A DNA stretch of 64,000 nucleotides. It comes from Mermis nigrescens. Its lineage: Eukaryota > Nematoda > Enoplea > Mermithida > Mermithidae. The stretch covers positions 16,650,407 to 16,714,406 of the forward strand of contig JAVLUZ010000142.1 of the NCBI GenBank assembly GCA_036768485.1, in the 5' to 3' direction. The position numbers and the translations under genes are program-made. Below the pieces are notes generated by a model. That model had not been told where the DNA came from. It was given only the letters and a program-made list of their open reading frames with translations, and searched no databases. This document shows, in pieces, positions 6,440 through 41,069 of the stretch. Position 1 is the stretch's first letter. Every line of letters begins with the position of its first letter.

Positions 6440-6448
6440 GTTTGAACT
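6440..6448. repeat. 9-bp target-site duplication, left copy
   Basis: GTTTGAACT lies directly left of the palindromic element and is repeated exactly at 14087-14095. Removing the element and one copy restores a continuous LINE frame across the site, which supports it as the true insertion point. Confidence 0.92.
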
Positions 6449-6480
6449 GGTAGTAATTATTTGCAGTCAACTGCAGGTAA

Positions 6481-6868
6481 TATAGCACACAATGTAAAAT
6501 TATATGCAGTCAAAAACCAGCGGCCTAGACTGCAGGCAATATAGCACACAATGTAAAATTATATGCAGTCAAAAACCAGCGGCCTAGACTGCAGGCAATA
6601 TAGCACACAATGTAAAATTATATGCAGTCAAAAACCAGCGGCCTAGACTGCAGGCAATATAGCACACAATGTAAAATTATATGCAGTCAAAAACCAGCGG
6701 CCTAGACTGCAGGCAATATAGCACACAATGTAAAATTATATGCAGTCAAAAACCAGCGGCCTAGACTGCAGGCAATATAGCACACAATGTAAAATTATAT
6801 GCAGTCAAAAACCAGTGGCTCAGACTGCAGGCAATATAGCACACAATGTGATATTATATGCAGTCAAG
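6481..6868. repeat. 59-bp subterminal tandem array, left arm
   Basis: The phrase TATAGCACACAATGTAAAAT recurs at 6481 and then every 59 bases for about seven units. Each unit also contains AGCGGCCTAGACTGCAGGC. GCAGTC and GACTGC within each unit are inverse, so every unit can fold. The array is mirrored at 13620-14060. Confidence 0.93.
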
Positions 6869-7439
6869 TTGGAAGCTTATCGATATGGGAAGCTGGCGCT
6901 TTGCTTGCATTTCAACCTGTAGTAGATGGTTTTAGAAGGCACTTTTATTTGAGATGGTCTGGCAGATTTGCTTCCTCATTAGAAAATATTTTTTGCGCTG
7001 CATGGGTAGCACATTCAATAGCTGCCCAGTCACCCATTAGTGCATGTTGATGGGCCAGCTTAAGCTCTGGGGCATACATACATACACACATATTTGATCA
7101 ATCCGGAATAAATTTACAACTACATACATACACAGACTAGCACTATCACGGCCAATTAATCTTATGATGTCAGTTGTATACCCTGTCTCCCTAGGGGGCA
7201 AAGCTATAACATCGCCTATGTTATAGCATAGGCGGAGGGGCTCAGAATCTGCTCCCTGGCTTTTCTCAGGGAGCAATGCTGCAGCATAGGTTGTGTTGTA
7301 GCATAGGGGCCTGCACGGACCTGCCCGGGGAGGGGGCGCACACAAGCCCAGGGCCAAGGGAGGGGCAAATTTCCAGGGGGAATTTCCCTGGGGGATAAAT
7401 TGAAAGAGCTATAATTCAAGAACCAGCAGCCAGATCGGA

Positions 7440-8600
7440 TTAAAAATTTCAGAGTCTGTTAAGTATATGTTCGGTATGCTACGTACAAAATTTTAGCGCG
7501 CAACCTACAGTATACCAGCATTACTTTACACTTTTGCATAATTCAAGAACCAATCGCCGGATTTTGTTCAAATATTCATGACATGATGTATATAGTCGAG
7601 TCATGCTATGCACAGAATTTCAGTGCGCAGCCTACAGTATACCAGATTACTTTACACTTTCTCATTTGGTAGTATAACTTTAGAAATAGAGGGCGGATAG
7701 GGTTCAAATTTTCATAGTAGGGTGGGTTTATGTTGCATGTGTTATCTCATTGTAATCAACATGAAATCTACAGTATGCCGATTTTAGTTTACACTTCCTC
7801 ATATAGGAACGTAAATCAAGAACCAATGGCTGGATTTTGTTCAGATTTCTAGGATATGATGTATATAGGCGAGGCATGCTATGCATAGAATTTTAGCGCG
7901 CAGCCTACAGTATACCAAATTACTTTACACTTGCTCAAATAGTGATATAACTTCAGAAATAGAGGGCGGATTGGGTTAAAATTTTCATAGTAAGGTGGGT
8001 TTATGTTGCATGTGTTATCCTATTGTTATCAGCATGTAATCTACAGTATGCCGATTTTAGTTTACACTTCATCATATAGCACCATATTTCAAGAACCAAT
8101 GCTTGGATTTTGTTCAGATTTTCAGGATATGATGTATAGAGGCGAGGCATGCTATGCATAGAATTTTAGCGCGCAGCCTACAGTATACCAATTTACTTTA
8201 CACTTGCTCAAATAGTACTATAACCTTAGAAATAGAGGGCGGATTGGAATAAAATTTTCATAGTAGGGTGGGTTTATGTTGCATGTATCATCTTATTGTT
8301 AACAGCACGTGATCTACAGTATGCGGATTTTATTTTACACTTCCTCATATAGCACCATATTTAAATAACCAATGCTGTGATTTTGTTCAAATTGTTAGGA
8401 TATGATGTATATAGGCAAGGCATGCTACATATGGAATTTCAGCGCGCAGCCTACAGTACACCAGTTTACTTTACACTTTCTCATATAGCACTATATTTCA
8501 AGAACTAGAGGGCAGATTTGGCTCAAATTTTCAAAGTACGTTAGGTTTACGTAGGTATGCTTTGTACAAAATTTTAGCGCACAACCTACAGTATGCTGAT
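7440..8600. repeat. ~138-bp degenerate tandem repeats, left arm
   Basis: About nine units each end in a variant of CCTACAGTATACCA followed by TTTACACTT, spaced 130-145 bases. Two alternating types make a larger ~276-bp period. Several units contain TGTATATAGG, a TATA-like string. The right arm (11580-13040) has the same array inverted. Confidence 0.85.
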
Positions 8601-8880
8601 TTTTTTTACACTGTCTTTACAATGCTTAATTTTTTACCAGTACTTGTCTAATGATGCCATTATGGGTTATTTTTGCCCAAAAATACGCAACCAGTATAGG
8701 CGAACATTGCTCAAATTTAATTATCATGCAATTTTGAGCTTCTCAAAGTTTATCAGAAAATGCCTGAAAAAGGGCGATCTTTGCCTGCTGTTCAACTTGT
8801 GGAAATTTTTAAGCCCTGAAGCTAGGTTTTACTTTACAAACTTCCACACAAAATTAATTAATTAAAACATAACTTCATCC
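8593..8880 (+). CDS. Unknown ~95-codon frame conserved in both arms (left copy)
   Basis: The frame reads through SNDAIMGYFCPKIRNQYRR, a basic middle with LKKGDLCLLF, and SPEARFYF. The mirrored copy at 11208-11552 keeps nearly the same protein, and there the frame stays open longer because the left copy meets a stop after a local change near 8860. No ATG is conserved between the copies at the start. Some changes between the arms alter residues, for example a C/Y and a W/R difference. No family is recognised. It could be a small structural or regulatory gene of the element, or part of a longer decayed gene. Confidence 0.4.
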
Positions 8881-8899
8881 ATGTAATTAGTATTGATCT

Positions 8900-9136
8900 A
8901 AAAATTTGCAAAGTTTGGAATATTTTTTGTAAAGCCTAAAAAACTTTTTTTTGTAAAATTTGGAATATTTTTTGTGAAGCTTAAAATTTTTTTTTGTAAA
9001 ATTAGGAATATTTTTTGTAAAGTTTGGAATATTTTTTGTAAAGTTTGGAAATTTTTTTGTAAAATTTGGAATATTTCTTGTAAAGTTTGGAATATTTTTT
9101 GTAAAATTTGGAAAATTTTTTGTAAAGTTTGAAATA
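8900..9136. repeat. AT-rich ~19-bp tandem repeats, left arm
   Basis: Variants of TTTTTTGTAAAGTTTGGAA recur about every 19-20 bases. They lie directly downstream of the TBP-like gene stop and are mirrored at 11035-11295. Frames through them are artefacts of the period. Confidence 0.8.
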
Positions 9137-9589
9137 TTATGTATCTAATCTGCATTTCTCAAGCATTGTTGAAACTATTTCATATGCTCTGTGCAACTCA
9201 TGCTCCTGTTTTGCACCTTTAAGGATCAATTTTCCGCTGGTGAACGGCAAAAATGTTATATTTCTGAATTTGTATAATAAGCCAGGGAACAGTTCTACTT
9301 CATACATGCATTTTCTTTTCACCAGCTCATAAAATTTGCAAAGATTAATGCGGAACCCTGAATTTGCCGAACCTGCAAACATATGGGGTTTCACCTTTAA
9401 ATCATCACTTCTAGCATTTAATGCATCTACAGCTGATTTTATAGCACTTTCATCATCTTTCACTGTTTTAGCTCCAACACATACAATTTTACCCGATTCG
9501 AAAATCACTAATGTTGCCTGAGGTAGTCAAAATACAATTCCTGGAAATCTCAAATAATTGTATTGTGCAGTCTTTGCTTTGCTTGTATT
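9137..9589 (-). pseudogene. TATA-binding-protein (TBP) homologue, decayed, in the palindromic element
   Basis: The minus-strand frame from 9589 down to the TAA at 9137-9139 shows both halves of the TBP saddle. The first half has YNYLRFPGIVF, an in-frame TGA at 9527-9529, then VIFESGKIVCVGAK. The second has YEVELFPGLLYKF and FTSGKLILKGAK. The two SGK motifs are 86 residues apart, close to the roughly 90 of cellular TBPs. The four phenylalanine positions that intercalate into TATA DNA in known TBPs (FPG and F.SGK in each half) are all present. The first strand and helix of the first half are missing: the frame meets TAA at 9590-9592 next to low-complexity DNA. It is strongly diverged from cellular TBP, which is normally highly conserved. 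It is divergently oriented to the ATPase 75 bp away. The C-terminus ends about where TBP normally ends. Confidence 0.83.
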
Positions 9590-9661
9590 TTATGTATTTT
9601 GTATTTTATATTGTGTTTTGTATTTTATTTTTTATTGTATTTTTTTTTATTTTTGTTTGTT
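9590..9661. repeat. Low-complexity divergent intergenic segment
   Basis: TATTTTGTATTTTA-like sequence separates the divergent TBP-like and ATPase genes. Both genes appear to lack their first ~15-30 codons exactly at its edges. An internal deletion followed by filler sequence is therefore more likely than a natural promoter. A TTTGTTTCAG string at its right end resembles a splice acceptor, so a lost upstream exon is another possibility. Confidence 0.45.
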
Positions 9662-10286
9662 TCAGGACCAACAAAGTCAGGTAAAACAACATTTGTCAAG
9701 CGATTAATTGAGAATAGAGCATGCCTGATTGATACTGAAATCAAAAAGATTTGGTGGTGCTTCATGGAAAACCAGCCTCTTTATAGAAAATTAAATGATG
9801 TTTTATTCATAGAAGGGCTTCCTGATTTTAATTACCTAAACCAGTTTAGTCATATGCCTCAACTTTTGATTCTCGATGATCTTATGCAACAGAGCAAGGG
9901 TAATGCCCAGATTGTGCAACTTTTTACAAGTTGTCATCATTGAAACATTAGCATTATACACATTGTTCAAAACGTTTTCTTTGATGATCTGAGAACTTCA
10001 CGCATCAACTCTGATTACATAGTTTTATTCAAACACCCTGCTGATCAGCTACAGGCACAAATGCTTTCCAGACAGCTCTATCCTGCCAACGCTAAATATT
10101 TTCCACAAGCTTATTCTGATGCTACTTCTCAGTCACATGGTTACCTTGTAATTGATTTAACTCAAAATGCTAAGAGATGAGATCAGGCTTAAAACAAATA
10201 TTTTTAGCAGGCATCCAACTGTTTATATGCAGAAATCTATAAATACTAGTAGAGATATTGTGACAAAAAAGGGAAAAAATGGGTAA
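9662..10286 (+). pseudogene. FtsK/HerA-type DNA-packaging ATPase of Polinton/adintovirus kind, decayed
   Basis: The frame opens with a Walker A motif GPTKSGKT (9665-9688), continues with KIWWCFMENQPLY, and has a Walker B block LLILDDLM near 9862-9885. After SCHH an in-frame TGA (9941-9943) interrupts it. The same frame then continues with NISIIHIVQN, SDYIVLFKHP and DATSQSHGYLVIDL, the conserved order of packaging ATPases of Polintons and relatives. A single-base frame change near 10178 precedes the tail, which ends at TAA 10284-10286. In the family this enzyme pumps the genome into a capsid. The usual short leader before Walker A is missing or replaced by T-rich sequence. One stop and one frameshift make it nonfunctional. 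Confidence 0.9.
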
Positions 10287-10698
10287 AGAACGATTAACAC
10301 GCAATATTGGTTGTTTACATCTCCTAAGTCGGGCTAAAAAAACCTCAAAGAACCGCTATTATAAATACTGCAAGCAAAGATCAAATCCTTTGTCTCTGTG
10401 ACTGTGCAAACAACTTTCTGAATTGTAATATCCCTTTTGATAAAAAGGATATAAATAAACTTCACTTCAAAGATATAAGAATCAAATAAGATACCTGGCA
10501 AACAAAAAGCAGGCGACTACAAAACAAAAGAAAGATATTATAATACGGCAAGGTGGTTTTCTTCCTCTTTTACTTACTCCCATACTTACAATAGGTTTAG
10601 TCCGCTCGCTGATTTCAGCAGGTATACAAATAATTTTTTCAGTATGTTTCATTTACTACCAACTATTGCATCAGCTAGCAAACTACCAGCTATTGTAA
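10279..10698 (+). pseudogene. Small basic/hydrophobic virion-type protein (pX-like), decayed
   Basis: An ATG at 10279 overlaps the ATPase stop in the string ATGGGTAA, a compact viral arrangement. The first block is basic (MGKERLTRNIGCLHLLSRA). The reading frame then shifts near 10400 into LCLCDCANNFLNCNIPFDKK, and shifts again near 10485 into KKQATTKQKKD followed by RQGGFLPLLLTPIL, ending at TAA 10696-10698. A lysine-rich stretch followed by a QGGFLP-type hydrophobic segment is characteristic of the adenovirus pX-like proteins reported next to the ATPase in adintoviruses and Polintons, where they are thought to condense DNA or act on membranes. Two frameshifts disable it. A partial inverted second copy is at 10693-10955. 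Confidence 0.62.
10592..10692. other. Centre of the palindrome (about 100-bp spacer)
   Basis: Left of this segment the pX-like gene runs rightward. Right of it the same sequence runs leftward, beginning with the inverse of CATACTTACAATA. The spacer has no inverse partner, so it marks the axis of symmetry of the whole element. Confidence 0.75.
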
Positions 10699-10955
10699 GT
10701 ATGTGAGTAAGTGAAAGAGGAAGAAAACCACCTTCCTGTATTATAATATATTTCTTTTGTTTTGTCACGTGCTTTTTGTTTGCCAGGTATCTTATTTGAT
10801 TCTGATATCTTCAAAGTTTATTCATATCCTTTTTATCAAAAGGAATATTACAATTCAGAAAGTTGTTTGCACAGTCACAGAGACAAAGGATTTGATCCTT
10901 GCTAGCAGTATTTAAAATCGCGCTTCTTTGAGGTTTTTTTTTGCTTGACTTAGGA
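10693..10955 (-). pseudogene. Inverted partial copy of the pX-like gene (right arm)
   Basis: This is the mirror of about 10310-10592, including the inverses of GGTGGTTTTCTTCCTC and CCTTTTGATAAAAAGGATAT. At about 10954 it jumps directly to the mirror of the TBP-like gene's 3' end (9203 leftward), skipping the ATPase and most of the TBP-like gene. GGAG occurs on both sides of the junction and may have mediated the deletion. Confidence 0.8.
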
Positions 10956-11034
10956 GGGAGCATGAGTTGTACAGAGCATATAAAATAGTTTCAACAATGC
11001 TTGAGAAATGCAAATTAGATACATAATATTTCAA
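10956..11034 (+). pseudogene. Mirrored 3' end of the TBP-like gene (right arm)
   Basis: The inverse of 9129-9203 is present, including TTGAGAAATGCAAATTAGAT. Only the last ~25 codons of the gene remain in this arm. This shows that the right arm once carried the gene too. Confidence 0.75.
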
Positions 11035-11295
11035 ACTTTACAGAAAATTTCCCGAATTTTACAAAAAATCTTCCAAATTTTACTAGAAATATTCCAAATT
11101 TTATAAAAAATATTCCAAACTTTACAAAAAATATTCCAAACTTTGCAAAAGTACTATGCTTAAGCATGTAAAATTAATTCCAAGTTTTACAGAAAAATTT
11201 CCAAACTTTACAAAAATATTCCAAACTTTACATTCCAAATTTTACAAAAAAAAATTCTAAGCTTAACAAAAAATATTCCAAACTTTGCAAATTTT
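11035..11295. repeat. AT-rich ~19-bp tandem repeats, right arm
   Basis: This is the mirror of 8900-9136, with TTTACAAAAAATATTCCAAA variants. The arms have diverged by small insertions and deletions. Confidence 0.75.
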
Positions 11296-11552
11296 TCGAT
11301 CAATACTGATGACATGGATGAAGTTATGTTTTCATTAATGAATTTTGTGTGAAGGTTTGTAAAGTAAAACCTAGCTTCAGGGCTTAAAAATTTCCGCAAG
11401 TTGAACAGCAGGCAAAGATCGCCCTTTTTCAGGTATTTTCTGATAAACTTTGAGAAGCTCAAAATTGCATGATAATTAAATTTGAGCAATGTTCGCCTAT
11501 ACTGGTTGCTTATTTTTGGGCAAAAATAACTCCTAATAGCATCATTAGACAA
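11208..11552 (-). CDS. Unknown ~110-codon frame conserved in both arms (right copy)
   Basis: This is the mirror of the frame at 8593-8880: SNDAIRSYFCPKISNQYRR, LKKGDLCLLF and SPEARFYFTNLHTKF are shared, and the frame runs on for about 30 codons past the point where the left copy stops. The first codon of this open frame is TTG, so the true start is unknown. Function is unknown. Confidence 0.4.
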   Translation of the reverse strand: MSNDAIRSYFCPKISNQYRRTLLKFNYHAILSFSKFIRKYLKKGDLCLLFNLRKFLSPEARFYFTNLHTKFINENITSSMSSVLIEKFAKFGIFFVKLRIFFCKIWNVKFGIFL

Positions 11553-11579
11553 GTACTAGTAAAAAATTAAGCATTGTAA

Positions 11580-13040
11580 AGACAGTGTAAAAAAAATCAG
11601 CATACTGTAGGTTGTGCGCTAAAATTTTGTACATAGCATACCTAAGTAAACCTAACGTACTTTGAAAATTTGAGCCAAATCTGCCCTCTAGTTCTTGAAA
11701 TATAGTGCTATATGAGAAAGTGTAAAGTAAACTGGTGTACTATAAGCTTCGATGCTGAAATTCCATATATAGTATGCCTTGCTGACATACATCATATCCT
11801 AACAATTTAAACAAAATCACAGCATTGGTTCTTTAAATATGGTGCTATATGAGGAAGTGTAAACTAAAATCCGCACACTGTAGATCACATGCTGAAACAA
11901 TAAGATGATACATGCAACATAAACCCACCCTACTATGAAAATTTTATTCCAATCCGCCCTCTATTTCTAAGGTTATAGTACTATTTGAGCAAGTGTAAAG
12001 TAAATTGGTATACTGTAGGCTGCGCGCTAAAATTCTATGCATAGCATGCCCTGCCTCTATACGTCATATCCTGAAAATCTGAACAAAATCCAAGCATTGG
12101 TTCTTGAAATATGGTGCTATATGATTAAGTGTAAACTAAAATCGGCATACTGTAGATTACATGCTGATAACAATAGGATAACACATGCAACATAAACCCA
12201 CCCTACTATGAAAATTTAAACCCAATCTGCCCTCTATTTCTGAAGTTATATCACTATTTGAGCAAGTGTAAAGTAATTTGGTATACTGTAGGCTGCGCGC
12301 TAAAATTCTATGCATAGCATGCCTCGCCTATATACATCATATCCTAAAAATCTGAACAAAATCCAGCCATTGGTTCTCAATTTACGTTCCTATATGAGAA
12401 AGTGTAAACTAAAATTGGCATACTGTAGATTACATGTTGATAACAATAATATAAGACATGCAACATAAACCCATCCTACTATGAAAATTTGAGTCCAATC
12501 CGCCCTCTATTTCCAAAATTATAGTACCAAATGAGAGTGTAAAGTAATCTGGTAAACTGTAGGCTGCGCACTGACATTCTGTGCATAGCCTGACCATATG
12601 TGGGCAGCAAGAAAATTCTGGGGGGGGGTGCAAGATTTTTTGAAGGTCGAAAAATGGCCTTAAAAATGGTGGTATGGCGATAAAAACACCATTTTTCGAC
12701 GTTTCTCATCAAGCACTATCCATTGGCATCAAAAAATTGCGAAAAAAACGAAAAAAATTTTCAAAAATTGAATTCTGGGGGGTATTTTGATTTCTGGCGG
12801 GTATTTTTGGTTTCTGGGGGGTGCATACCCCCAAACCCCCCCCCCCCCACGCCCAGGTGTGAGCCTGACTCGCCTATATACATCATGTCATGAAAATTTG
12901 AACAAAATCCGGCCATTGGTTCTTGAATTATGCAAAAGTGTAAAGTAATGCTGGTATACTGTAGGTTGCGCGCTAAAATTTTGTACGTAGCATACCTAAC
13001 ATATACTTAACACTCTGAAATTTTTAGTCCGATCTGGCTG
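11580..13040. repeat. ~138-bp degenerate tandem repeats, right arm
   Basis: This is the inverse of 7440-8600, with repeated AAGTGTAAAGTAA and ACTGTAGGCTGCGCGC phrases. It is interrupted at 12595-12861 by a hAT MITE that the left arm lacks. Confidence 0.85.
12595..12861. mobile_element. hAT MITE in the right arm (267 bp)
   Basis: The segment starts CATATGTGGGCAGCAAG and ends with the inverse of CACACCTGGGCGTGGGGG, an imperfect inverted repeat. It is flanked by the exact 8-bp duplication AGCCTGAC (12587-12594 and 12862-12869). The left arm shows the uninterrupted empty site near 7580-7600. It has no coding capacity. Confidence 0.93.
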
Positions 13041-13619
13041 CTGGTTCTTGAATTATAGCTCTTTCAATTTCCCCCCCCCCCAGGGAAATTCCCCCCCTGG
13101 AAATTTGCCCCTCCCTTGGCCCTGGGCTTGCGTGCGCCCCCTCCCCGGGCAGGTTCGTGCAGGCCCCTATGCTACAACACAACCTATGCTGCAGCATTGC
13201 TCCCTGAGAAAAGCCAGGGAGCAGATTCTGAGCCCCTCCGCCTATGCTATAACATAGGCGATGTTATAGCTTTGCCCCCTAGGGAGACACGGTATACAAC
13301 TGACATCATAAGATTAATTGGCTGTGATAATGCTAGTCTGTGTATGTATGTAGTTATAAATTTATTCCGGATTGATCAAATATGTGTGTAGGTATATATG
13401 TATTCCCCAGAGCTTAAGCTGGCCCGTCAACATGCGCTAATGGGTGACTGGGCAGCTATTGAATGTGCTACCCATGCAGCGCAAAAAAAAATTTCCTAAT
13501 GAGGAAGCAAATCTGCCAGACCATCTCAAATAAAAGTGCCTTCTAAAACCATCTACTACAGGTTGATATGCGAGCAAAGCGCCAGCTTCCCATATTGATG
13601 TTTCCAACTTGACTGCATA

Positions 13620-14060
13620 TAATATCACATTGTGTGCTATATTGCCTGCAGTCTAGGCCGCTGGTTTTTGACTGCATATAATTTTACATTGTGTGCTATA
13701 TTGCCTGCAGTCTAGGCCGCTGGTTTTTGACTGCATATAATTTAACATTGTGTGCTATATTGCCTGCAGTCTAGGCCGCTGGCTTTTGACTGCATATAAT
13801 TTTACATTGTGTGCTATATTGCCTGCAGTCTAGGCCGCTGGTTTTTGACTGCATATAATTTTACATTGTGTGCTATATTGCCTGCAGTCTAGGCCACTGG
13901 TTTTTGACTGCATATAATTTAACATTGTGTGCTATATTGCCTGCAGTCTAGGCCGCTGGTTTTTGACTGCATATAATTTTACATTGTGTGCTATATTGCC
14001 TGCAGTCTAGGCTGCTGGTTTTTGACTGCATATAATTTTACATTGTGTGCTATATTACCT
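13620..14060. repeat. 59-bp subterminal tandem array, right arm
   Basis: ATTGTGTGCTATATTGCCTG recurs every 59 bases for about seven units, inverse to the array at 6481-6868. Confidence 0.93.
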
Positions 14061-14086
14061 GCAGTTGACTGCAAATAATTACTGCC

Positions 14087-14095
14087 GTTTGAACT
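14087..14095. repeat. 9-bp target-site duplication, right copy
   Basis: GTTTGAACT lies directly right of the element, identical to 6440-6448. Confidence 0.92.
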
Positions 14096-24720: not shown

Positions 24721-24744
24721 AGTTTATCAACAACTCTTTTTCAC

Positions 24745-25200
24745 AACATCGTTGATTAACGTAATTTTTCAAAACTCGTTGATTAACGTAACTTTATCAA
24801 AACTCGTTGATTTGCAATTTTCAAAACTCGTTGATTAACGTAATTTTTCAAAACTCGTTGATTAACGTAACTTTTCAAAACTCGTTGATTTGTAATTTTT
24901 CAAAACTCGTTGATTAACGTAACTTTTCAAAACTCGTTGATTTGTAATTTTTCAAAACTCGTTGATTAACGTAACTTTTCAAAACTCGTTGATTTGTAAT
25001 TTTTCAAAACTCGTTGATTAACGTAACTTTTCAAAACTTGTTGATTAATGTAATTTTTCAAAACTCGTTGATTATCGTAATTTTTCAAAACTCGTTGATT
25101 AACGTTATTTTTCAAAACTCGTTGATTAACGTAATTTTTCAAAACTCGTTGATTAACGTAATTTTTCAAAACTCGTTGATTAACGTATTTTTTCAAAGGA
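24745..25200. repeat. 27-bp minisatellite, left array (~16 units)
   Basis: AAAACTCGTTGATTAACGTA variants recur, mostly every 27 bases, in inverse orientation to the right array. Some units are shortened. Confidence 0.92.
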
Positions 25201-30870: not shown

Positions 30871-33800
30871 CCTTTGAAAAAATACGTTAATCAACGAGTA
30901 TTGAAAAATTACGTTAATCAATCAACGTGTTTTGAAAAACTACGTTAATCAACGAGTTTTGAAAAATTACGTTAATCAACGAGTTTTGAAAAGTTACGTT
31001 AATCAACGAGTTTTGAAAAATTACGTTAATCAACGAGTTTTGAAAAATTACGTTAATCAACGTGTTTTGAAAAATTACGTTAATCAACGAGTTTTGAAAA
31101 CTTGCGTTAATCAACGTGTTTTGAAAAATTACGTTAATCACCGAGTTTTGAAAAATTACGTTAATCAACGTGTTTTGAAAAATTAAGTTAATCAACGAGT
31201 TTTGGAAAATTACGTTAATCAACGTGTTTTAAAAAATTACATTAATCAACGACTTTTAAAAACTTACGCTAATCACCGAGTTTTGAAAAATTATGTTAAT
31301 CAACGTGTTTTGAAAAATTACGTTAATCAACGAGTTTTGAAAACTTACGTTAATCACCGAGTTTTGAAAAATTACGTTAATCAACGAGTTTTGAAAAATT
31401 ACGTTAATCAACGTGTTTTGAAAAATTAAGTTAATCAACGAGTTTTGAAAAATTACGTTAATCAACGTGTTTTAAAAAATTACATTAATCAACGACTTTT
31501 AAAAACTTACGCTAATCACCGAGTTTTGAAAAATTATGTTAATCAACGTGTTTTGAAAAATTACGTTAATCACCGAGTTTTGAAAAATTACGTTAATCAA
31601 CGTGTTTTGAAAAATTACGTTAATCAACGAGTTTTGAAAAATTACGTTAATCAACGTGTTTTGAAAAATTAAGTTAATCAACGAGTTTTGAAAAATTACG
31701 TTAATCAACGTGTTTTGAAAAATTAAGTTAATCAACGAGTTTTGGAAAATTACGTTAATCAACGTGTTTTGAAAAATTAAGTTAATCAACGAGTTTTGAA
31801 AAATTACGTTAATCAACGTGTTTTAAAAAATTACATTAATCAACGACTTTTAAAAACTTACGCTAATCACCGAGTTTTGAAAAATTATGTTAATCAACGT
31901 GTTTTGAAAAATTACGTTAATCACCGAGTTTTGATAAATTACGTTAATCAACGTGTTTTGAAAAATTACGTTAATCAACGAGTTTTGAAAAATTACGTTA
32001 ATCAACGTGTTTTGAAAAATTAAGTTAATCAACGAGTTTTGAAAAATTACGTTAATCAACGTGTTTTGAAAAATTACGTTAATCAACGTGTTTTGAAAAA
32101 TTAAGTTAATCAACGAGTTTTGGAAAATTACGTTAATCAACGTGTTTTGAAAAATTAAGTTAATCAACGAGTTTTGAAAAATTACGTTAATCAACCTGTT
32201 TTGAAAAATTAAGTTAATCAACGAGTTTTGGAAAATTACGTTAATCAACGTGTTTTGAAAAATTAAGTTAATCAACGAGTTTTGAAAAATTACGTTAATC
32301 AACCTGTTTTGAAAAATTACGTTAATCAACGTGTTTTGAAAAATTAAGTTAATCAACGAGTTTTGGAAAATTACGTTAATCAACGTGTTTTGAAAAATTA
32401 AGTTAATCAACGAGTTTTGAAAAATTACGTTAATCAACGTGTTTTAAAAAATTACATTAATCAACGACTTTTAAAAACTTACGCTAATCACCGAGTTTTG
32501 AAAAATTATGTTAATCAACGTGTTTTGAAAAATTACGTTAATCACCGAGTTTTGAAAAATTACGTTAATCAACGTGTTTTGAAAAATTACGTTAATCAAC
32601 GAGTTTTGAAAAATTACGTTAATCAACGTGTTTTGAAAAATTAAGTTAATCAACGAGTTTTGAAAAATTACGTTAATCAACCTGTTTTGAAAAATTACGT
32701 TAATCAACGAGTTTTGAAAACTTGCGTTAATCAACGTGTTTTGAAAAATTACGTTAATCACCGAGTTTTGAAAAATTACGTTAATCAACGTGTTTTGAAA
32801 AATTAAGTTAATCAACGAGTTTTGGAAAATTACGTTAATCAACGTGTTTTAAAAAATTACATTAATCAACGACTTTTAAAAACTTACGCTAATCACCGAG
32901 TTTTGAAAAATTATGTTAATCAACGTGTTTTGAAAAATTACGTTAATCACCGAGTTTTGAAAAATTACGTTAATCAACGTGTTTTGAAAAATTACGTTAA
33001 TCAACGAGTTTTGAAAAATTACGTTAATCAACGTGTTTTGATAAATTAAGTTAATCAACGAGTTTTGAAAAATTACGTTAATCAACGTGTTTTGAAAAAT
33101 TACATTAATCAACGACTTTTAAAAACTTACGCTAATCACCGAGTTTTGAAAAATTATGTTAATCAACGTGTTTTGAAAAATTACGTTAATCACCGAGTTT
33201 TGAAAAATTACGTTAATCAACGTGTTTTGAAAAATTACGTTAATCAACGAGTTTTGAAAAATTACGTTAATCAACGTGTTTTGAAAAATTAAGTTAATCA
33301 ACGAGTTTTGAAAAATTACGTTAATCAACGTGTTTTGAAAAATTAAGTTAATCAACGAGTTTTGGAAAATTACGTTAATCAACGTGTTTTGAAAAATTAA
33401 GTTAATCAACGAGTTTTGAAAAATTACGTTAATCAACGTGTTTTAAAAAATTACATTAATCAACGACTTTTGAAAAACTTACGCTAATCACCGAGTTTTG
33501 AAAAATTATGTTAATCAACGTGTTTTGAAAAATTACGTTAATCACCGAGTTTTGAAAAATTACGTTAATCAACGTGTTTTGAAAAATTACGTTAATCAAC
33601 GAGTTTTGAAAAATTACGTTAATCAACGTGTTTTGAAAAATTAAGTTAATCAACGAGTTTTGAAAAATTACGTTAATCAACGTGTTTTGAAAAATTACGT
33701 TAATCAACGTGTTTTGAAAAATTAAGTTAATCAACGAGTTTTGGAAAATTACGTTAATCAACGTGTTTTGAAAAATTAAGTTAATCAACGAGTTTTGAAA

Positions 33801-36572
33801 AATTACGTTAATCAACCTGTTTTGAAAAATTAAGTTAATCAACGAGTTTTGGAAAATTACGTTAATCAACGTGTTTTGAAAAATTAAGTTAATCAACGAG
33901 TTTTGAAAAATTACGTTAATCAACCTGTTTTGAAAAATTACGTTAATCAACGTGTTTTGAAAAATTAAGTTAATCAACGAGTTTTGGAAAATTACGTTAA
34001 TCAACGTGTTTTTGAAAAATTAAGTTAATCAACGAGTTTTGAAAAATTACGTTAATCAACGTGTTTTGAAAAATTAAGTTAATCAACGAGTTTTTGAAAA
34101 ATTACGTTAATCAACGTGTTTTGAAAAATTAAGTTAATCAACGAGTTTTGGAAAATTACGTTAATCAACGTGTTTTGAAAAATTAAGTTAATCAACGAGT
34201 TTTGAAAAATTACGTTAATCAACCTGTTTTGAAAAATTAAGTTAATCAACGAGTTTTGGAAAATTACGTTAATCAACGTGTTTTGAAAAATTAAGTTAAT
34301 CAACGAGTTTTGAAAAATTACGTTAATCAACCTGTTTTGAAAAATTACGTTAATCAACGTGTTTTGAAAAATTAAGTTAATCAACGAGTTTTGGAAAATT
34401 ACGTTAATCAACGTGTTTTGAAAAATTAAGTTAATCAACGAGTTTTGAAAAATTACGTTAATCAACGTGTTTTGAAAAATTAAGTTAATCAACGAGTTTT
34501 GAAAAATTACGTTAATCAACGTGTTTTGAAAAATTACGTTAATCAACGAGTTTTGAAAAAATTACGTTAATCAACGAGTTTTGAAAAATTACGTTAATCA
34601 ACGTGTTTTGAAAAATTAAGTTAATCAACGAGTTTTGAAAAATTACGTTAATCAACGTGTTTTGAAAAATTACGTTAATCAACGTGTTTTGAAAAATTAA
34701 GTTAATCAACGAGTTTTGGAAAATTACGTTAATCAACGTGTTTTAAAAAATTACATTAATCAACGACTTTTAAAAAACTTACGCTAATCACCGAGTTTTG
34801 AAAAATTATGTTAATCAACGTGTTTTTGAAAAATTACGTTAATCAACGAGTTTTGAAAAATTACGTTAATCAACGTGTTTTGAAAAATTAAGTTAATCAA
34901 CGAGTTTTGGAAAATTACGTTAATCAACGTGTTTTAAAAAATTACATTAATCAACGACTTTTAAAAACTTACGCTAATCACCGAGTTTTGAAAAATTATG
35001 TTAATCAACGTGTTTTGAAAAATTACGTTAATCACCGAGTTTTGAAAAATTACGTTAATCAACGTGTTTTGAAAAATTACGTTAATCAACGAGTTTTGAA
35101 AAATTACGTTAATCAACGTGTTTTGAAAAATTAAGTTAATCAACGAGTTTTGAAAAATTACGTTAATCAACGTGTTTTGAAAAATTACATTAATCAACGA
35201 GTTTTAAAAACTTACGCTAATCACCGAGTTTTGAAAAATTATGTTAATCAACGTGTTTTGAAAAATTTCGTTAATCAACGAGTTTTGAAAACTTATGTTA
35301 ATCATCGACTTTTGAAAAATTACGTTAATCGACGAGTTTTGAAAAATTACGTTAATCAACGAGTTTTGAAAAATTACGTTAATCAACCTGTTTTGAAAAA
35401 TTAAGTTAATCAACGAGTTTTGGAAAATTACGTTAATCAACGTGTTTTGAAAAATTAAGTTAATCAACGAGTTTTGAAAAATTACGTTAATCAACCTGTT
35501 TTGAAAAATTACGTTAATCAACGTGTTTTGAAAAATTAAGTTAATCAACGAGTTTTGGAAAATTACGTTAATCAACGTGTTTTGAAAAATTAAGTTAATC
35601 AACGAGTTTTGAAAAAATTACGTTAATCAACGTGTTTTGAAAAATTAAGTTAATCAACGAGTTTTGAAAAATTACGTTAATCAACGTGTTTTGAAAAATT
35701 AAGTTAATCAACGAGTTTTGAAAAATTACGTTAATCAACGAGTTTTGAAAAATTACGTTAATCAACGTGTTTTGAAAAATTAAGTTAATCAACGAGTTTT
35801 GAAAAATTACGTTAATCAACGTGTTTTGAAAAATTACGTTAATCAACGTGTTTTGAAAAATTAAGTTAATCAACGAGTTTTGGAAAATTACGTTAATCAA
35901 CGTGTTTTAAAAATTACATTAATCAACGACTTTTAAAAACTTACGCTAATCACCGAGTTTTGAAAAATTATGTTAATCAACGTGTTTTGAAAAATTACGT
36001 TAATCAACGAGTTTTGAAAAATTACGTTAATCAACGTGTTTTGAAAAATTAAGTTAATCAACGAGTTTTGGAAAATTACGTTAATCAACGTGTTTTAAAA
36101 AATTACATTAATCAACGACTTTTAAAAACTTACGCTAATCACCGAGTTTTGAAAAATTATGTTAATCAACGTGTTTTGAAAAATTACGTTAATCACCGAG
36201 TTTTGAAAAATTACGTTAATCAACGTGTTTTGAAAAATTACGTTAATCAACGAGTTTTGAAAAATTACGTTAATCAACGTGTTTTGAAAAATTAAGTTAA
36301 TCAACGAGTTTTGAAAAATTACGTTAATCAACGTGTTTTGAAAAATTACATTAATCAACGAGTTTTAAAAACTTACGCTAATCACCGAGTTTTGAAAAAT
36401 TATGTTAATCAACGTGTTTTGAAAAATTTCGTTAATCAACGAGTTTTGAAAACTTATGTTAATCATCGACTTTTGAAAAATTACGTTAATCGACGAGTTT
36501 TGAAAAATTACGTTAATCAACGAGTTTTGAAAAATTACGTTAATCAACGAGTTTTGAAAAATTATGTTAATG
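30870..36572. repeat. 27-bp minisatellite, right array (~210 units) with higher-order structure
   Basis: Units are variants of GAAAAATTACGTTAATCAAC. Because 27 is a multiple of three, one frame on each strand stays open for long stretches (NYVNQRVLK on plus, INVIFQNSL on minus), which is not evidence of a gene. A marker variant (AACTTACGCTAATCACC) recurs at 31261, 31504, 31855, 32476, 32881 and 33124, at spacings of 243, 351, 621, 405 and 243 bases, all multiples of 27. Confidence 0.95.
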
Positions 36573-39388: not shown

Positions 39389-41069
39389 ATGGCTAGCTTG
39401 ATCACTCATCAGCAGGACCTGGAATCTGGAAACAAGAAATATAGTGCACTATCTCAAATGGCTCGTCGTTGTGTGATGTCCGCATTCATTGTGCACGCAC
39501 TACAAGTATTTATTAAGTGGACATTCTATTGCCCGCTTTTCACAACGGGATGGAGCGCATTTCAATTTTACCTCATGCTTGTTTCTATTGTGGTTTCGTT
39601 AGGACAACTTTCGGCTTGCGCCAGAATTATGGAGCGCTTAGAGGCGACCCTGTGTTGTGCAAGCGTTGGATTTATATTTTTATGGTATCAAACGTTTGAT
39701 CGGACGATTATTGACGAAAGTTGGCTGTCATTTCGATTTTTAGCTTAGTAAGCATTTTGCTTTAATTTTCGGCAGTTTGGTATTTCAAATTTATCTCGTT
39801 TTTATGCAATATGATTTTTCGTCCTTCAAGTTCTCTTTTTTACTAGTTCGATTGCCTTTTTCGCAATCGATTAGTTGAGAATTCCAGTGATACATATGTA
39901 CATCACATGCCATACTAGACACACCCTTGGAGAACGCTCAAATCAGCCAGGCAGGAGCTATTTCGCCTGTCTATTTAAATATGCTTTGTGGTCAGATCAC
40001 TAAAGTTTATTACGTTAATGGGTACAATAATATTGGTTGTTACAATTCTTTGATTTTTAAAAATTTATCGATGTCTGTTCTCCTGAATCGATATTGTCGT
40101 CAGCTGAGATATTCCTACCTTTTAGTAAGTAAAGTCCTCGTCCATAAGAGCCTAAATCCATGACGGTGTCATTTTAAACTCCCGAGTCTGAGCAGTAGCG
40201 AATGGCCTCAGTCTCATTATTTGACTTGCCGTGGCTTCATTTTATCATTTCCTCATTATTTTTCAGTGGTTTCGGGACTTAATGTGAATGTTATTAATAA
40301 TATATAATATATTAATAATATATCTTAATATTATTAATAATATAGAACATATTAATGATATATCTCAATTTTAATAATATTAAATTAAAACTTAATGTGC
40401 TTCTTGTCATATTAATTTCCGCTAACGCACCATTCCATGTCCGGAAAAATGTGCTTCCCATCAGGCGGTTGGATTTACAGTTTTTAGCGGTTTCAAATAG
40501 AACGATTAAATACGAAAAAATAATTTCGAATATTCCATTGAGAAATTTGTTTTTTTATCCGTTTTTTATCAATTTTTTCATAGTCGCGATATTTTTGTCC
40601 CAGTGGTAAGCTTTTTATCTATAGCAACTTTGCCATGTACGGAAGTCTGGTTCTTTTGGCTGCTGAAACGATAGATGATTGCGGTCCCTTATTTCATGGC
40701 AGTTCTCTGCAGCATAAACGTTGCCAGTCGATTATGCTACTGGTAGGCCGCATTCTATTGTGCTTTTGGGCCGCCCCGTTATTCCGGCTCAATTTCGGTT
40801 CAATCCCGTGGATACTACTCCTGATTTCTGGAATATCCATGGTCTCAGTGTTGATTGGCTTCAAAGCGAAATCGTCAGCTTTACTATTGGTCGCTTTAAT
40901 GTCTCTTTTCAACATCATTCAGAATCCTTGGCGTCCCTTATTCTGCGACCCCTTGCTGAATGATTTGATGACGCATGCCTTTTTCCCGACTATCTCAGTC
41001 ATTGGCGGCCTTTTGATGATCATTCTATTGGGACCGGGCGCTTTCAGTTTGGATGAACTTAAGAAATGA
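39389..41069 (+). CDS. SURF4-like (ERV29 family) ER cargo-receptor homologue, two coding exons
   Basis: Exon 1 is 39389-39747 and exon 2 is 40625-41069, joined by a GT-AG intron (donor GTAAGC at 39748, acceptor CTATAG ending at 40624) that splits a codon. The coding length is 804 nt, 267 residues, matching the ~269 of SURF4. Exon 1 carries an arginine-containing amphipathic start and membrane segments including VSLGQLSACARIMERLE. Exon 2 has SLVLLAAETID, VLIGFKAKSSALLLVALMSL and the family-typical end SVIGGLLMIILLGPGAFSLD. SURF4 proteins are multi-pass membrane receptors that load soluble cargo into COPII vesicles at the ER. The ATG at 39389 follows an acceptor-like TATTTTCAG, so an upstream noncoding exon is possible. 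The C-terminus DELKK lacks the usual dilysine position. It is diverged, but the frame is intact. Confidence 0.85.
39748..40624 (+). other. Intron of the SURF4-like gene
   Basis: An 877-base GT-AG intron, AT-rich, with a run of TATTAATAATATA at about 40290-40375. The 84-codon frame at 40355-40609 lies wholly inside it and has no family feature. Confidence 0.8.

What the first reader, a model, noticed from the sequence alone, without database searches (positions are those of the whole stretch)
9137..9589. A TATA-binding-protein homologue inside a Polinton-type mobile element
Both halves of the TBP saddle are readable on the minus strand: FPGIVF and F.SGKIVCVGAK, then ELFPGLLYKF and FTSGKLILKGAK, 86 residues apart. 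All four positions of the DNA-intercalating phenylalanines are kept. The gene sits 75 bp from, and divergent to, a Polinton/adintovirus packaging ATPase inside a bounded element. TBP homologues are known in some large DNA viruses; I know of no described TBP in Polintons or adintoviruses, though I cannot search for one. A private TBP could let an element direct transcription from its own promoters.
Basis: partly seen in the sequence, partly recalled or inferred. Interest (0 to 1): 0.92.

Follow-up and report, generated by a model that had tools for sequence, protein, structure and literature searches.

The report
Private TATA-binding protein in animal Polintons
Virus-like mobile elements (Polintons) in an animal genome carry their own version of TBP, the protein that marks where genes are switched on, and the family studied best here has matching TATA boxes before many of its genes, so these elements may partly run their own gene-starting machinery inside the host nucleus.

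Summary
Window 9137-9526 (-) is a real TBP (PF00352, E 3e-24), broken by one in-frame TGA and missing its start. Relics of a Polinton-type ATPase and its next gene lie beside it, inside a 7.6-kb foldback element (6449-14086) with a 9-bp flanking repeat: a dead, rearranged fragment. In 15 of 19 that I fetched, the TBP lies within 10 kb of PolB, integrase, protease, ATPase or capsid-like genes. The window lineage is not host TBP (AU p 7e-75) and is under purifying selection (dN/dS 0.10-0.28 in 15 pairs). The two TFIIB-contact glutamates are kept in 18 of 19 frames; the basic surface for TFIIA/TAF1/Mot1 is mostly lost. TFIIB itself has only 3 matches in the genome. TATAAATA is the commonest upstream 8-mer in the intact relative L030 (5 of 9 gene starts; 0 of 1000 shuffles). 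Inferred: the TBP reads the element's TATA boxes and recruits host TFIIB and Pol II. No test of expression or binding was possible. My literature searches found no TBP in a Polinton or adintovirus.

The parts
9137..9526 (-). TBP open frame, 129 aa, both saddle repeats (first repeat incomplete)
   Evidence: Pfam PF00352 E 3e-24; 92% to the intact TBP of L038
9527..9529 (-). in-frame TGA that breaks the TBP gene
9530..9574 (-). further TBP homology upstream of the stop, holds the first intercalating-Phe position
   Evidence: tblastn of L038 TBP residues 28-172 onto 9574-9140
9575..9661 (.). T-rich stretch where the start regions of TBP and ATPase would lie
   Evidence: no match to L030/L038 between the two blocks; T-rich tandem repeats 9583-9656
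9662..10294 (+). relic of an A32-type packaging ATPase (in-frame TGA at 9941-9943 and 10178-10180)
   Evidence: 78% to the 220-aa ATPase of L030 over residues 12-220; first piece 75% to P0001, which carries PF04665
10238..10245 (+). TATAAATA box before the next gene, kept in the relic
   Evidence: same box before u116 in L030
10279..10569 (+). relic of the next Polinton gene (u116)
   Evidence: tblastn with L030 u116, 53-67% in two frames
10590..10948 (-). inverted copies of the start of u188 (10590-10652) and of u116 (10652-10948): the turning point of the foldback
   Evidence: inverted repeats I1-I3
10952..11023 (+). inverted copy of the TBP tail (24 codons) in the right arm
   Evidence: 83% to L038 TBP residues 149-172
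6449..9206 (+). left arm of the foldback: 59-bp repeats 6470-6867, about 273-bp repeats 7537-8549, 21-bp repeats 8905-9138
10957..14086 (-). right arm of the foldback, inverted copy of the left (holds a dispersed insert at about 12595-12861)
6440..6448 (.). left copy of the 9-bp flanking repeat GTTTGAACT
14087..14095 (.). right copy of the 9-bp flanking repeat GTTTGAACT

Best explanation
The window holds a dead, foldback-rearranged fragment of a Polinton lineage whose standing gene set includes its own TBP. In intact relatives the TBP gene lies head to head with the packaging ATPase. SHOWN by sequence: the TBP fold and its DNA-intercalating residues, its place among Polinton genes, its long separate descent from host TBP, purifying selection, and TATA boxes before many genes of the element. 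INFERRED: the protein binds the element's TATA boxes, bends the DNA, and through its kept glutamate pair recruits the host's TFIIB and RNA polymerase II. The same host adapter and polymerase are used, but with a TBP that has lost most of the basic surface by which TFIIA, TAF1 and Mot1 hold cellular TBP. This would let the element start its own genes while partly outside host control of TBP.
For: TBP profile and fold; model of the L030 TBP with pLDDT 91.8, best PDB matches are TBPs, TM about 0.9. Element context: 15 of 19 fetched places. Descent: 16 element-type TBPs including the window on one branch 98/95, host TBP in the eukaryote clade 96/95; window subfamily + host TBP rejected, p 7e-75. 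Selection: dN/dS 0.100-0.283 in 15 pairs, one further pair saturated. Residues: F99, F116, F190 in 12 of 12 and F207 in 11 of 12 aligned element TBPs; E186 and E188 in 12 of 12 and in the window; the motif with both glutamates in 18 of 19 frames. Of five basic positions of helix H2, yeast has 5, elements 1-3, window 1. TFIIB: 3 matches from 10 candidates in the genome against 150 scored of 2553 candidates for TBP; 137 element-locus frames gave no TFIIB or RNA polymerase family at E 0.001. Promoters: TATAAATA at 5 of 9 L030 gene starts (shuffle mean 0.17) and 12 of 18 in the L030/L019/L024/L038 set (mean 0.57), 0 of 1000 shuffles as high in either.
Against: No expression, binding or occupancy data. 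TATAAATA is a good box for host TBP as well, so need for a private TBP is not shown. No TBP-less Polinton of this genome was examined as a control for the boxes. The 18 gene starts come from related loci and are not independent. Other lineages are weaker: L016+L017 2 of 7; L026 0 of 6 for TATAAATA (3 of 6 for TATAWAWR); L013 1 site (55 of 100 shuffles as high) and L027 2 sites (8 of 100). L020 has lost the glutamate motif. The base-contact residues N159 and T124 are changed in the window's family, so its DNA preference could differ from that of cellular TBP. Low dN/dS between copies partly reflects shared ancestry of the active lineages. The window copy itself is dead.
Confidence: 0.72

Rival explanations
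1. The element TBP is made to block or replace host TBP on host promoters (a host-shutoff or decoy factor) rather than to read the element's own promoters.
For: It keeps the DNA and TFIIB faces and has mostly lost the regulator face, so it could compete with host TBP. F-box genes lie near the TBP in several lineages, which could suit an attack on host proteins.
Against: The element's own genes are rich in TATA boxes, and TBP sits among structural and replication genes as a standing member.
Confidence: 0.12
2. TBP is a passenger: host or other TBP genes captured at random by Polintons or by the foldback element, with no function there.
For: The window copy is broken and lies in a foldback element. 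L021/L026 carry a different, eukaryote-like TBP, so capture may have happened more than once.
Against: dN/dS well under 1 in all 15 measurable pairs, the same gene neighbourhood in L029, L030, L038 and L039, and one branch for 16 element-type TBPs.
Confidence: 0.06
3. The TBP binds DNA for another task, such as marking the element's termini, replication origin or packaging site, with promoter use secondary.
For: N159 and T124, base-contact positions, are changed in the window's family, and the gene lies head to head with the packaging ATPase.
Against: The TFIIB-contact glutamates are kept, which only initiation would demand, and the commonest upstream word is a TATA box.
Confidence: 0.08

Closest known systems
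Polinton/Maverick elements and adintoviruses
   Same: The TBP-bearing loci carry rve(+chromo) integrase, DNA_pol_B_2, Peptidase_C5, A32-type ATPase and double-jelly-roll-like genes.
   Different: A TBP gene between integrase and ATPase. My searches found no TBP described for Polintons or adintoviruses; the founding adintovirus paper is not held.
TBPs of giant viruses (Nucleocytoviricota)
   Same: Virus-borne TBP fold; the BFVD matches with a name that I saw are mostly giant-virus TBPs and related factors.
   Different: Only 7-23% identical in that list. PMC7221094 (passages seen) reports that viral TBPs keep the TFIIB glutamate C.L3.2 in about 40% and that almost all viruses with a TBP have a TFIIB-like protein. 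Element TBPs keep both glutamates in 18 of 19 frames and no element TFIIB was found. CpV-BQ1 likewise has a TBP and two TFIIBs (PMC12085832, passages).
Mirusvirus TBPs
   Same: TBP is carried by many mirusviruses (59% in PMC10132985; passages) and sporadically by mirus-like elements in an algal genome (PMC10675990; passages).
   Different: Different virus realm and capsid. [quoted passage not shown] No mirusvirus TBP was put in my trees, so relation is untested.
Foldback (FB-like) transposons
   Same: Long inverted arms built of tandem repeats, a 9-bp flanking repeat; the 9-bp duplication of FB elements is recalled.
   Different: The arm core and interior derive from a Polinton; no transposase of its own was found in the window.

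Membership tests
TBP family | two TBP repeats at profile level | tested here: met
   window E 3e-24, two stretches; L030 TBP E 6.7e-43
TBP family | saddle fold | tested here: met
   L030 TBP model pLDDT 91.8, TM about 0.9 to TBP-DNA complexes; the window frame itself was not modelled
TBP family | four intercalating phenylalanines (positions recalled) | tested here: met
   12 of 12 at three positions, 11 of 12 at F207 (Y in L012); window keeps all four, one of them upstream of the stop
TBP family | TATA-box binding | not testable with these tools
   needs a binding assay
Host (cellular) TBP, recent copy | groups with the host's own TBP | tested here: not met
   AU p 7e-75; host TBP is a two-exon gene on C73 at 82% and 70% to yeast
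Polinton/Maverick (TBP-bearing relatives) | protein-primed-type DNA polymerase B | tested here: met
   PF03175 E 1e-19 in L015 and 4e-19 in L017; not found at E 1e-5 in L029-L032
Polinton/Maverick (TBP-bearing relatives) | retroviral-type integrase | tested here: met
   rve + Chromo in L030, rve in L016; 5 of 137 frames
Polinton/Maverick (TBP-bearing relatives) | adenovirus-type protease | tested here: met
   PF00770 E 1e-7 in L026; 7 of 137 frames
Polinton/Maverick (TBP-bearing relatives) | A32/FtsK-type packaging ATPase | tested here: met
   related proteins P0001-P0004, P0006 and P0008 bear PF04665; L030's own match is just under the cut-off (22.2 of 22.8 bits)
Polinton/Maverick (TBP-bearing relatives) | double-jelly-roll major capsid protein | tested here: inconclusive
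   PF21738 below cut-off (L026 20 of 27 bits; L030 13.2 bits); AlphaFold model failed, pLDDT 39; no PDB match
Polinton/Maverick (window element itself) | 6-bp target duplication (recalled) | tested here: not met
   flanking repeat is 9 bp
Polinton/Maverick (window element itself) | core gene set | tested here: not met
   only TBP, ATPase, u116 and u188 pieces found at E 1e-3
Foldback element | long inverted arms of tandem repeats | tested here: met
Foldback element | 9-bp target duplication (recalled) | tested here: met
   one element only; a shared 8-mer in two random 14-mers occurs in 0.7% of draws
Giant-virus TBP-TFIIB pair | virus-borne TFIIB beside TBP | tested here: not met
   PF00382: 3 matches in the whole genome; none in 137 element-locus frames; a very divergent TFIIB could be missed

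The most novel reading that the evidence does not exclude
Several lineages of animal Polintons run a half-private RNA polymerase II initiation system: a TBP of ancient, non-host descent reads the elements' own TATAAATA promoters and docks on the host's TFIIB and polymerase, while it has shed the surface by which host factors police TBP. TBP families and promoter words may have diverged together (TATAAATA with the N159/T124-altered TBPs of the window's relatives, TATAAAAG with the eukaryote-like TBP of L026).
Probability: 0.5. Interest if true: 0.92.

Novelty: new variant of a known kind. Interest (0 to 1): 0.82.

Why it matters
Polintons are thought to stand near the root of many eukaryotic DNA viruses, and how their genes are switched on is little known (recalled; my searches were narrow). 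A Polinton-borne TBP, kept by selection, without its own TFIIB or polymerase, would be a minimal viral take-over of Pol II initiation. It differs from the TBP-TFIIB pairs of giant viruses, and it makes the question 'which parts of TBP does a parasite need?' testable with one 172-aa protein and short promoters. It also offers a deep-branching outgroup to cellular TBPs. The TBP gene could serve as a marker to recognise such Polintons in other genomes: P0009, P0010, P0014 and P0039 from unnamed outside sources already group with them.

Tried and rejected
Recent copy of host TBP: rejected by tree and AU test. The 16 element TBPs as an offshoot of metazoan TBPs: AU p 0.024, weaker. All 17 element rows (with L026) as one clade: not rejected, p 0.229, so one or two acquisitions stay open.

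Window TBP alone against 5.8 billion proteins: 10 candidates, none passed. The query's length window barred relatives longer than 226 aa; a 12-row alignment then gave 2696 hits, 120 listed. IMG/VR: no relative of TBP or ATPase in five scans. INPHARED phages: none for TBP or the ATPase piece. MCP fold: unusable. A census of how many Polintons here lack TBP was not obtained: the whole-genome search for PF04665 or the L030 ATPase did not complete.

Rows dropped: the careful tree used 42 of the 66 rows then assembled, leaving out long, near-identical or redundant rows. The labels 'element' for P0009, P0010, P0014 and P0039 were given by me by eye before the trees. Gene starts counted are 31 chosen by me; L029, L039 (near copies of L030, L038) and the single or few starts of L012, L013, L022, L025, L027, L028 printed were not counted.

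Full report
Observation. The minus-strand frame at 9137-9526 is a TBP: PF00352 E 3e-24, 85 bits, two stretches; best solved relatives are archaeal and eukaryotic TBPs. It breaks at a TGA (9527-9529), upstream of which KTAQYNYLRFPGIVF continues the homology to 9574; the first 27 residues or so are gone and T-rich sequence lies in their place. The ATPase relic runs 9662-10294 (+) with TGAs at 9941-9943 and 10178-10180. Its first piece is 75% identical to P0001, a 201-aa protein with PF04665.

The element in the window. Self-comparison shows 6445-9206 inverted against 14089-10957 at 92-97%. The ends read GG(T/C)AGTAATTATTTGCAG, and GTTTGAACT flanks both (6440-6448, 14087-14095). The centre is a turning point: relics of u116 and of the u188 start recur inverted, and the right arm keeps 24 codons of the TBP tail. 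L040 is a similar copy (blocks at 94-97% DNA identity over most of the window element). In the search with the window TBP, several places come as inverted pairs about 2.6-3.7 kb apart, as expected of such a family. The outer 59-bp repeats gave no match in the intact relatives compared, but the arm core matches DNA downstream of the polymerase-side gene of L038, continued in L041. So this is a foldback element made largely from Polinton DNA, not a Polinton.

Relatives. The genome (523,963,438 bases, 860 contigs) gave 150 scored PF00352 places out of 2553 candidates, a lower bound, and 150 scored of 2175 with the window TBP, the best non-self at 99%. I fetched 19 places chosen to spread over the list, plus the host TBP. 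Nineteen TBP frames of 165-234 aa were read there without mending. Within these 9.9-kb stretches, 15 of 19 hold another Polinton core gene at E 1e-5 (L013, L015-L021, L023-L027, L029, L030); L012 and L014 hold only integrase fragments; L022 and L028 none. L030 and L029 show integrase (rve + chromo), TBP, then divergent ATPase, u116, u188, u135, a capsid-like gene and a further gene. L038 and L039, nearest to the window of those fetched (L038 TBP 92%), keep that order, with some genes broken. L026 and L021 carry TBP at the end of an array with C5 protease and capsid-like genes. L015-L018 and L013 carry TBP with an F-box gene and PolB, integrase being seen in L016. Among 137 frames of 115 aa or more from 21 loci, Pfam at E 0.001 found TBP in 22, Peptidase_C5 in 7, F-box in 6, rve in 5, Pox_A32 in 5, DNA_pol_B_2 in 4 and DJR-like in 2, and no TFIIB or RNA polymerase. 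The capsid assignment is weak: below cut-off, failed model, no PDB match. L029 and L030 showed no PolB catalytic match; that their 257-aa gene is a PolB N-terminus is recalled resemblance only.

Descent. Host TBP lies in two exons on C73, 82% and 70% to yeast, and groups with tardigrade TBP (P0124) and P0116 at 98/97; hence 'probably an invertebrate'. In a 42-row tree, 16 element-type TBPs, window included, form one branch (98/95), eukaryotic TBPs another (96/95), archaeal-type TBPs a third (99/97); L026 falls beside the eukaryotes (92/90) on a long branch. Window subfamily plus host TBP is rejected (p 7e-75). All 17 element rows together are not (p 0.229), and 16 plus metazoan TBPs gives p 0.024. 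Four proteins from outside sources (P0009, P0010, P0014, P0039), without known context, group with the element TBPs. Mirusvirus and giant-virus TBPs were not in the trees.

Selection. Of 16 pairs compared, 15 gave dN/dS from 0.100 to 0.283; L013-L025 was saturated. The values between subfamilies (L030-L038 0.158, L038-L019 0.142) show long-term constraint.

How it may work. Aligned to yeast TBP, 12 of 12 element TBPs keep N69, F99, F116, F190, E186 and E188; F207 is Y in L012; N159 is L or M in 5 of 12 and in the window; T124 is kept in 5 of 12 and is V in the window. In all 19 frames the glutamate motif is present in 18; L020 lost it. Of five basic H2 positions (yeast 5) elements keep 1-3 and the window 1. 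PMC7221094 (passages only) describes two C-lobe glutamates as the TFIIB contact and an N-lobe basic cluster as the shared contact of TFIIA, Mot1, Brf1/2 and TAF1; equating these with E186/E188 and the H2 positions is my recall. It also reports that viral TBPs often lose the glutamate and that almost all such viruses have a TFIIB of their own. Here the opposite: glutamates kept, and PF00382 gives 3 short matches from 10 candidates in the whole genome.

Promoters. Upstream 50-mers of 9 L030 gene starts hold TATAAATA in 5 (shuffle mean 0.17; 0 of 1000 as high), and it is the commonest 8-mer there. With L019, L024 and L038 it is 12 of 18 (mean 0.57; 0 of 1000); L016+L017 2 of 7; L026 0 of 6. Over element stretches TATAAATA occurs 9 times in L030 (shuffle mean 0.85) and L038 (0.68), but only 1 in L013 and 2 in L027, not above shuffles at 5%. 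L026 has 3 TATAAAAG (4 of 100 shuffles as high). Window DNA outside the element has 3 in 41 kb. Boxes lie 17 to 48 bp before the ATG, which would give very short leaders if starts lie about 30 bp below them (general knowledge). The window relic keeps one such box at 10238-10245.

Literature. Full-text searches: TATA-binding protein + Polinton, 3 papers; TBP + adintovirus, none; TBP + Polinton, 2; TATA-box + Polinton-like virus, 2; TATA-binding + Maverick + transposon, 1; TATA-binding protein + virophage, 5; two broader ones of which only listings were seen. Passages were opened in PMC10675990, PMC10132985, PMC11464507 and PMC12085832: their TBPs belong to mirus-like elements, mirusviruses or giant viruses. 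In PMC10120064 'TATA' has no occurrence; in PMC11071308 neither 'TATA' nor 'TBP'. The library holds open-licence papers only, and the founding adintovirus paper is not in it, so 'not described' is limited to these searches.

Verdict. The window copy is a broken fragment in a foldback element, but it leads to a family of TBP-bearing Polintons under selection, whose best-studied lineage has matching TATA boxes.

Noticed in passing
window 30873-36571: Satellite of about 210 copies of a 27-bp unit; a related array lies inverted at 24737-25197.
   Followed up: no
window 15648-48886: A second, nested set of large inverted repeats pairs 15.6-26.4 kb with 48.9-28.8 kb; it encloses the 27-bp satellite and a SURF4 exon.
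   Followed up: no
window 40584-41066: SURF4 C-terminal exon (PF02077, E 1.7e-30), a host gene piece.
   Followed up: no
window 12595-12861: A short dispersed element inside the right arm, with related copies at about 38.5 kb, 39.0 kb, 41.9 kb and 50.2 kb of the window and in L031/L032.
   Followed up: partly
L013:6164-6979, L015:5645-6511, L016:5678-6544, L017:2943-3779: F-box genes close to the TBP in these Polinton lineages; F-box-like hits also in L018 and L024.
   Followed up: partly
L021:4961-5503, L026:4656-5198: A second kind of TBP, closer to eukaryotic TBPs, in elements with TATAAAAG boxes: possibly a separate capture.
   Followed up: partly
L024:1692-2207 and L024:4530-4907: Two TBPs of different families within 3 kb of each other.
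   Followed up: no
L030:5754-6104, L030:6101-6667: Neighbouring element genes overlap by a few bases or more (ATPase/u116, u116/u188), with the TATA box of u116 inside the ATPase coding end.
   Followed up: no
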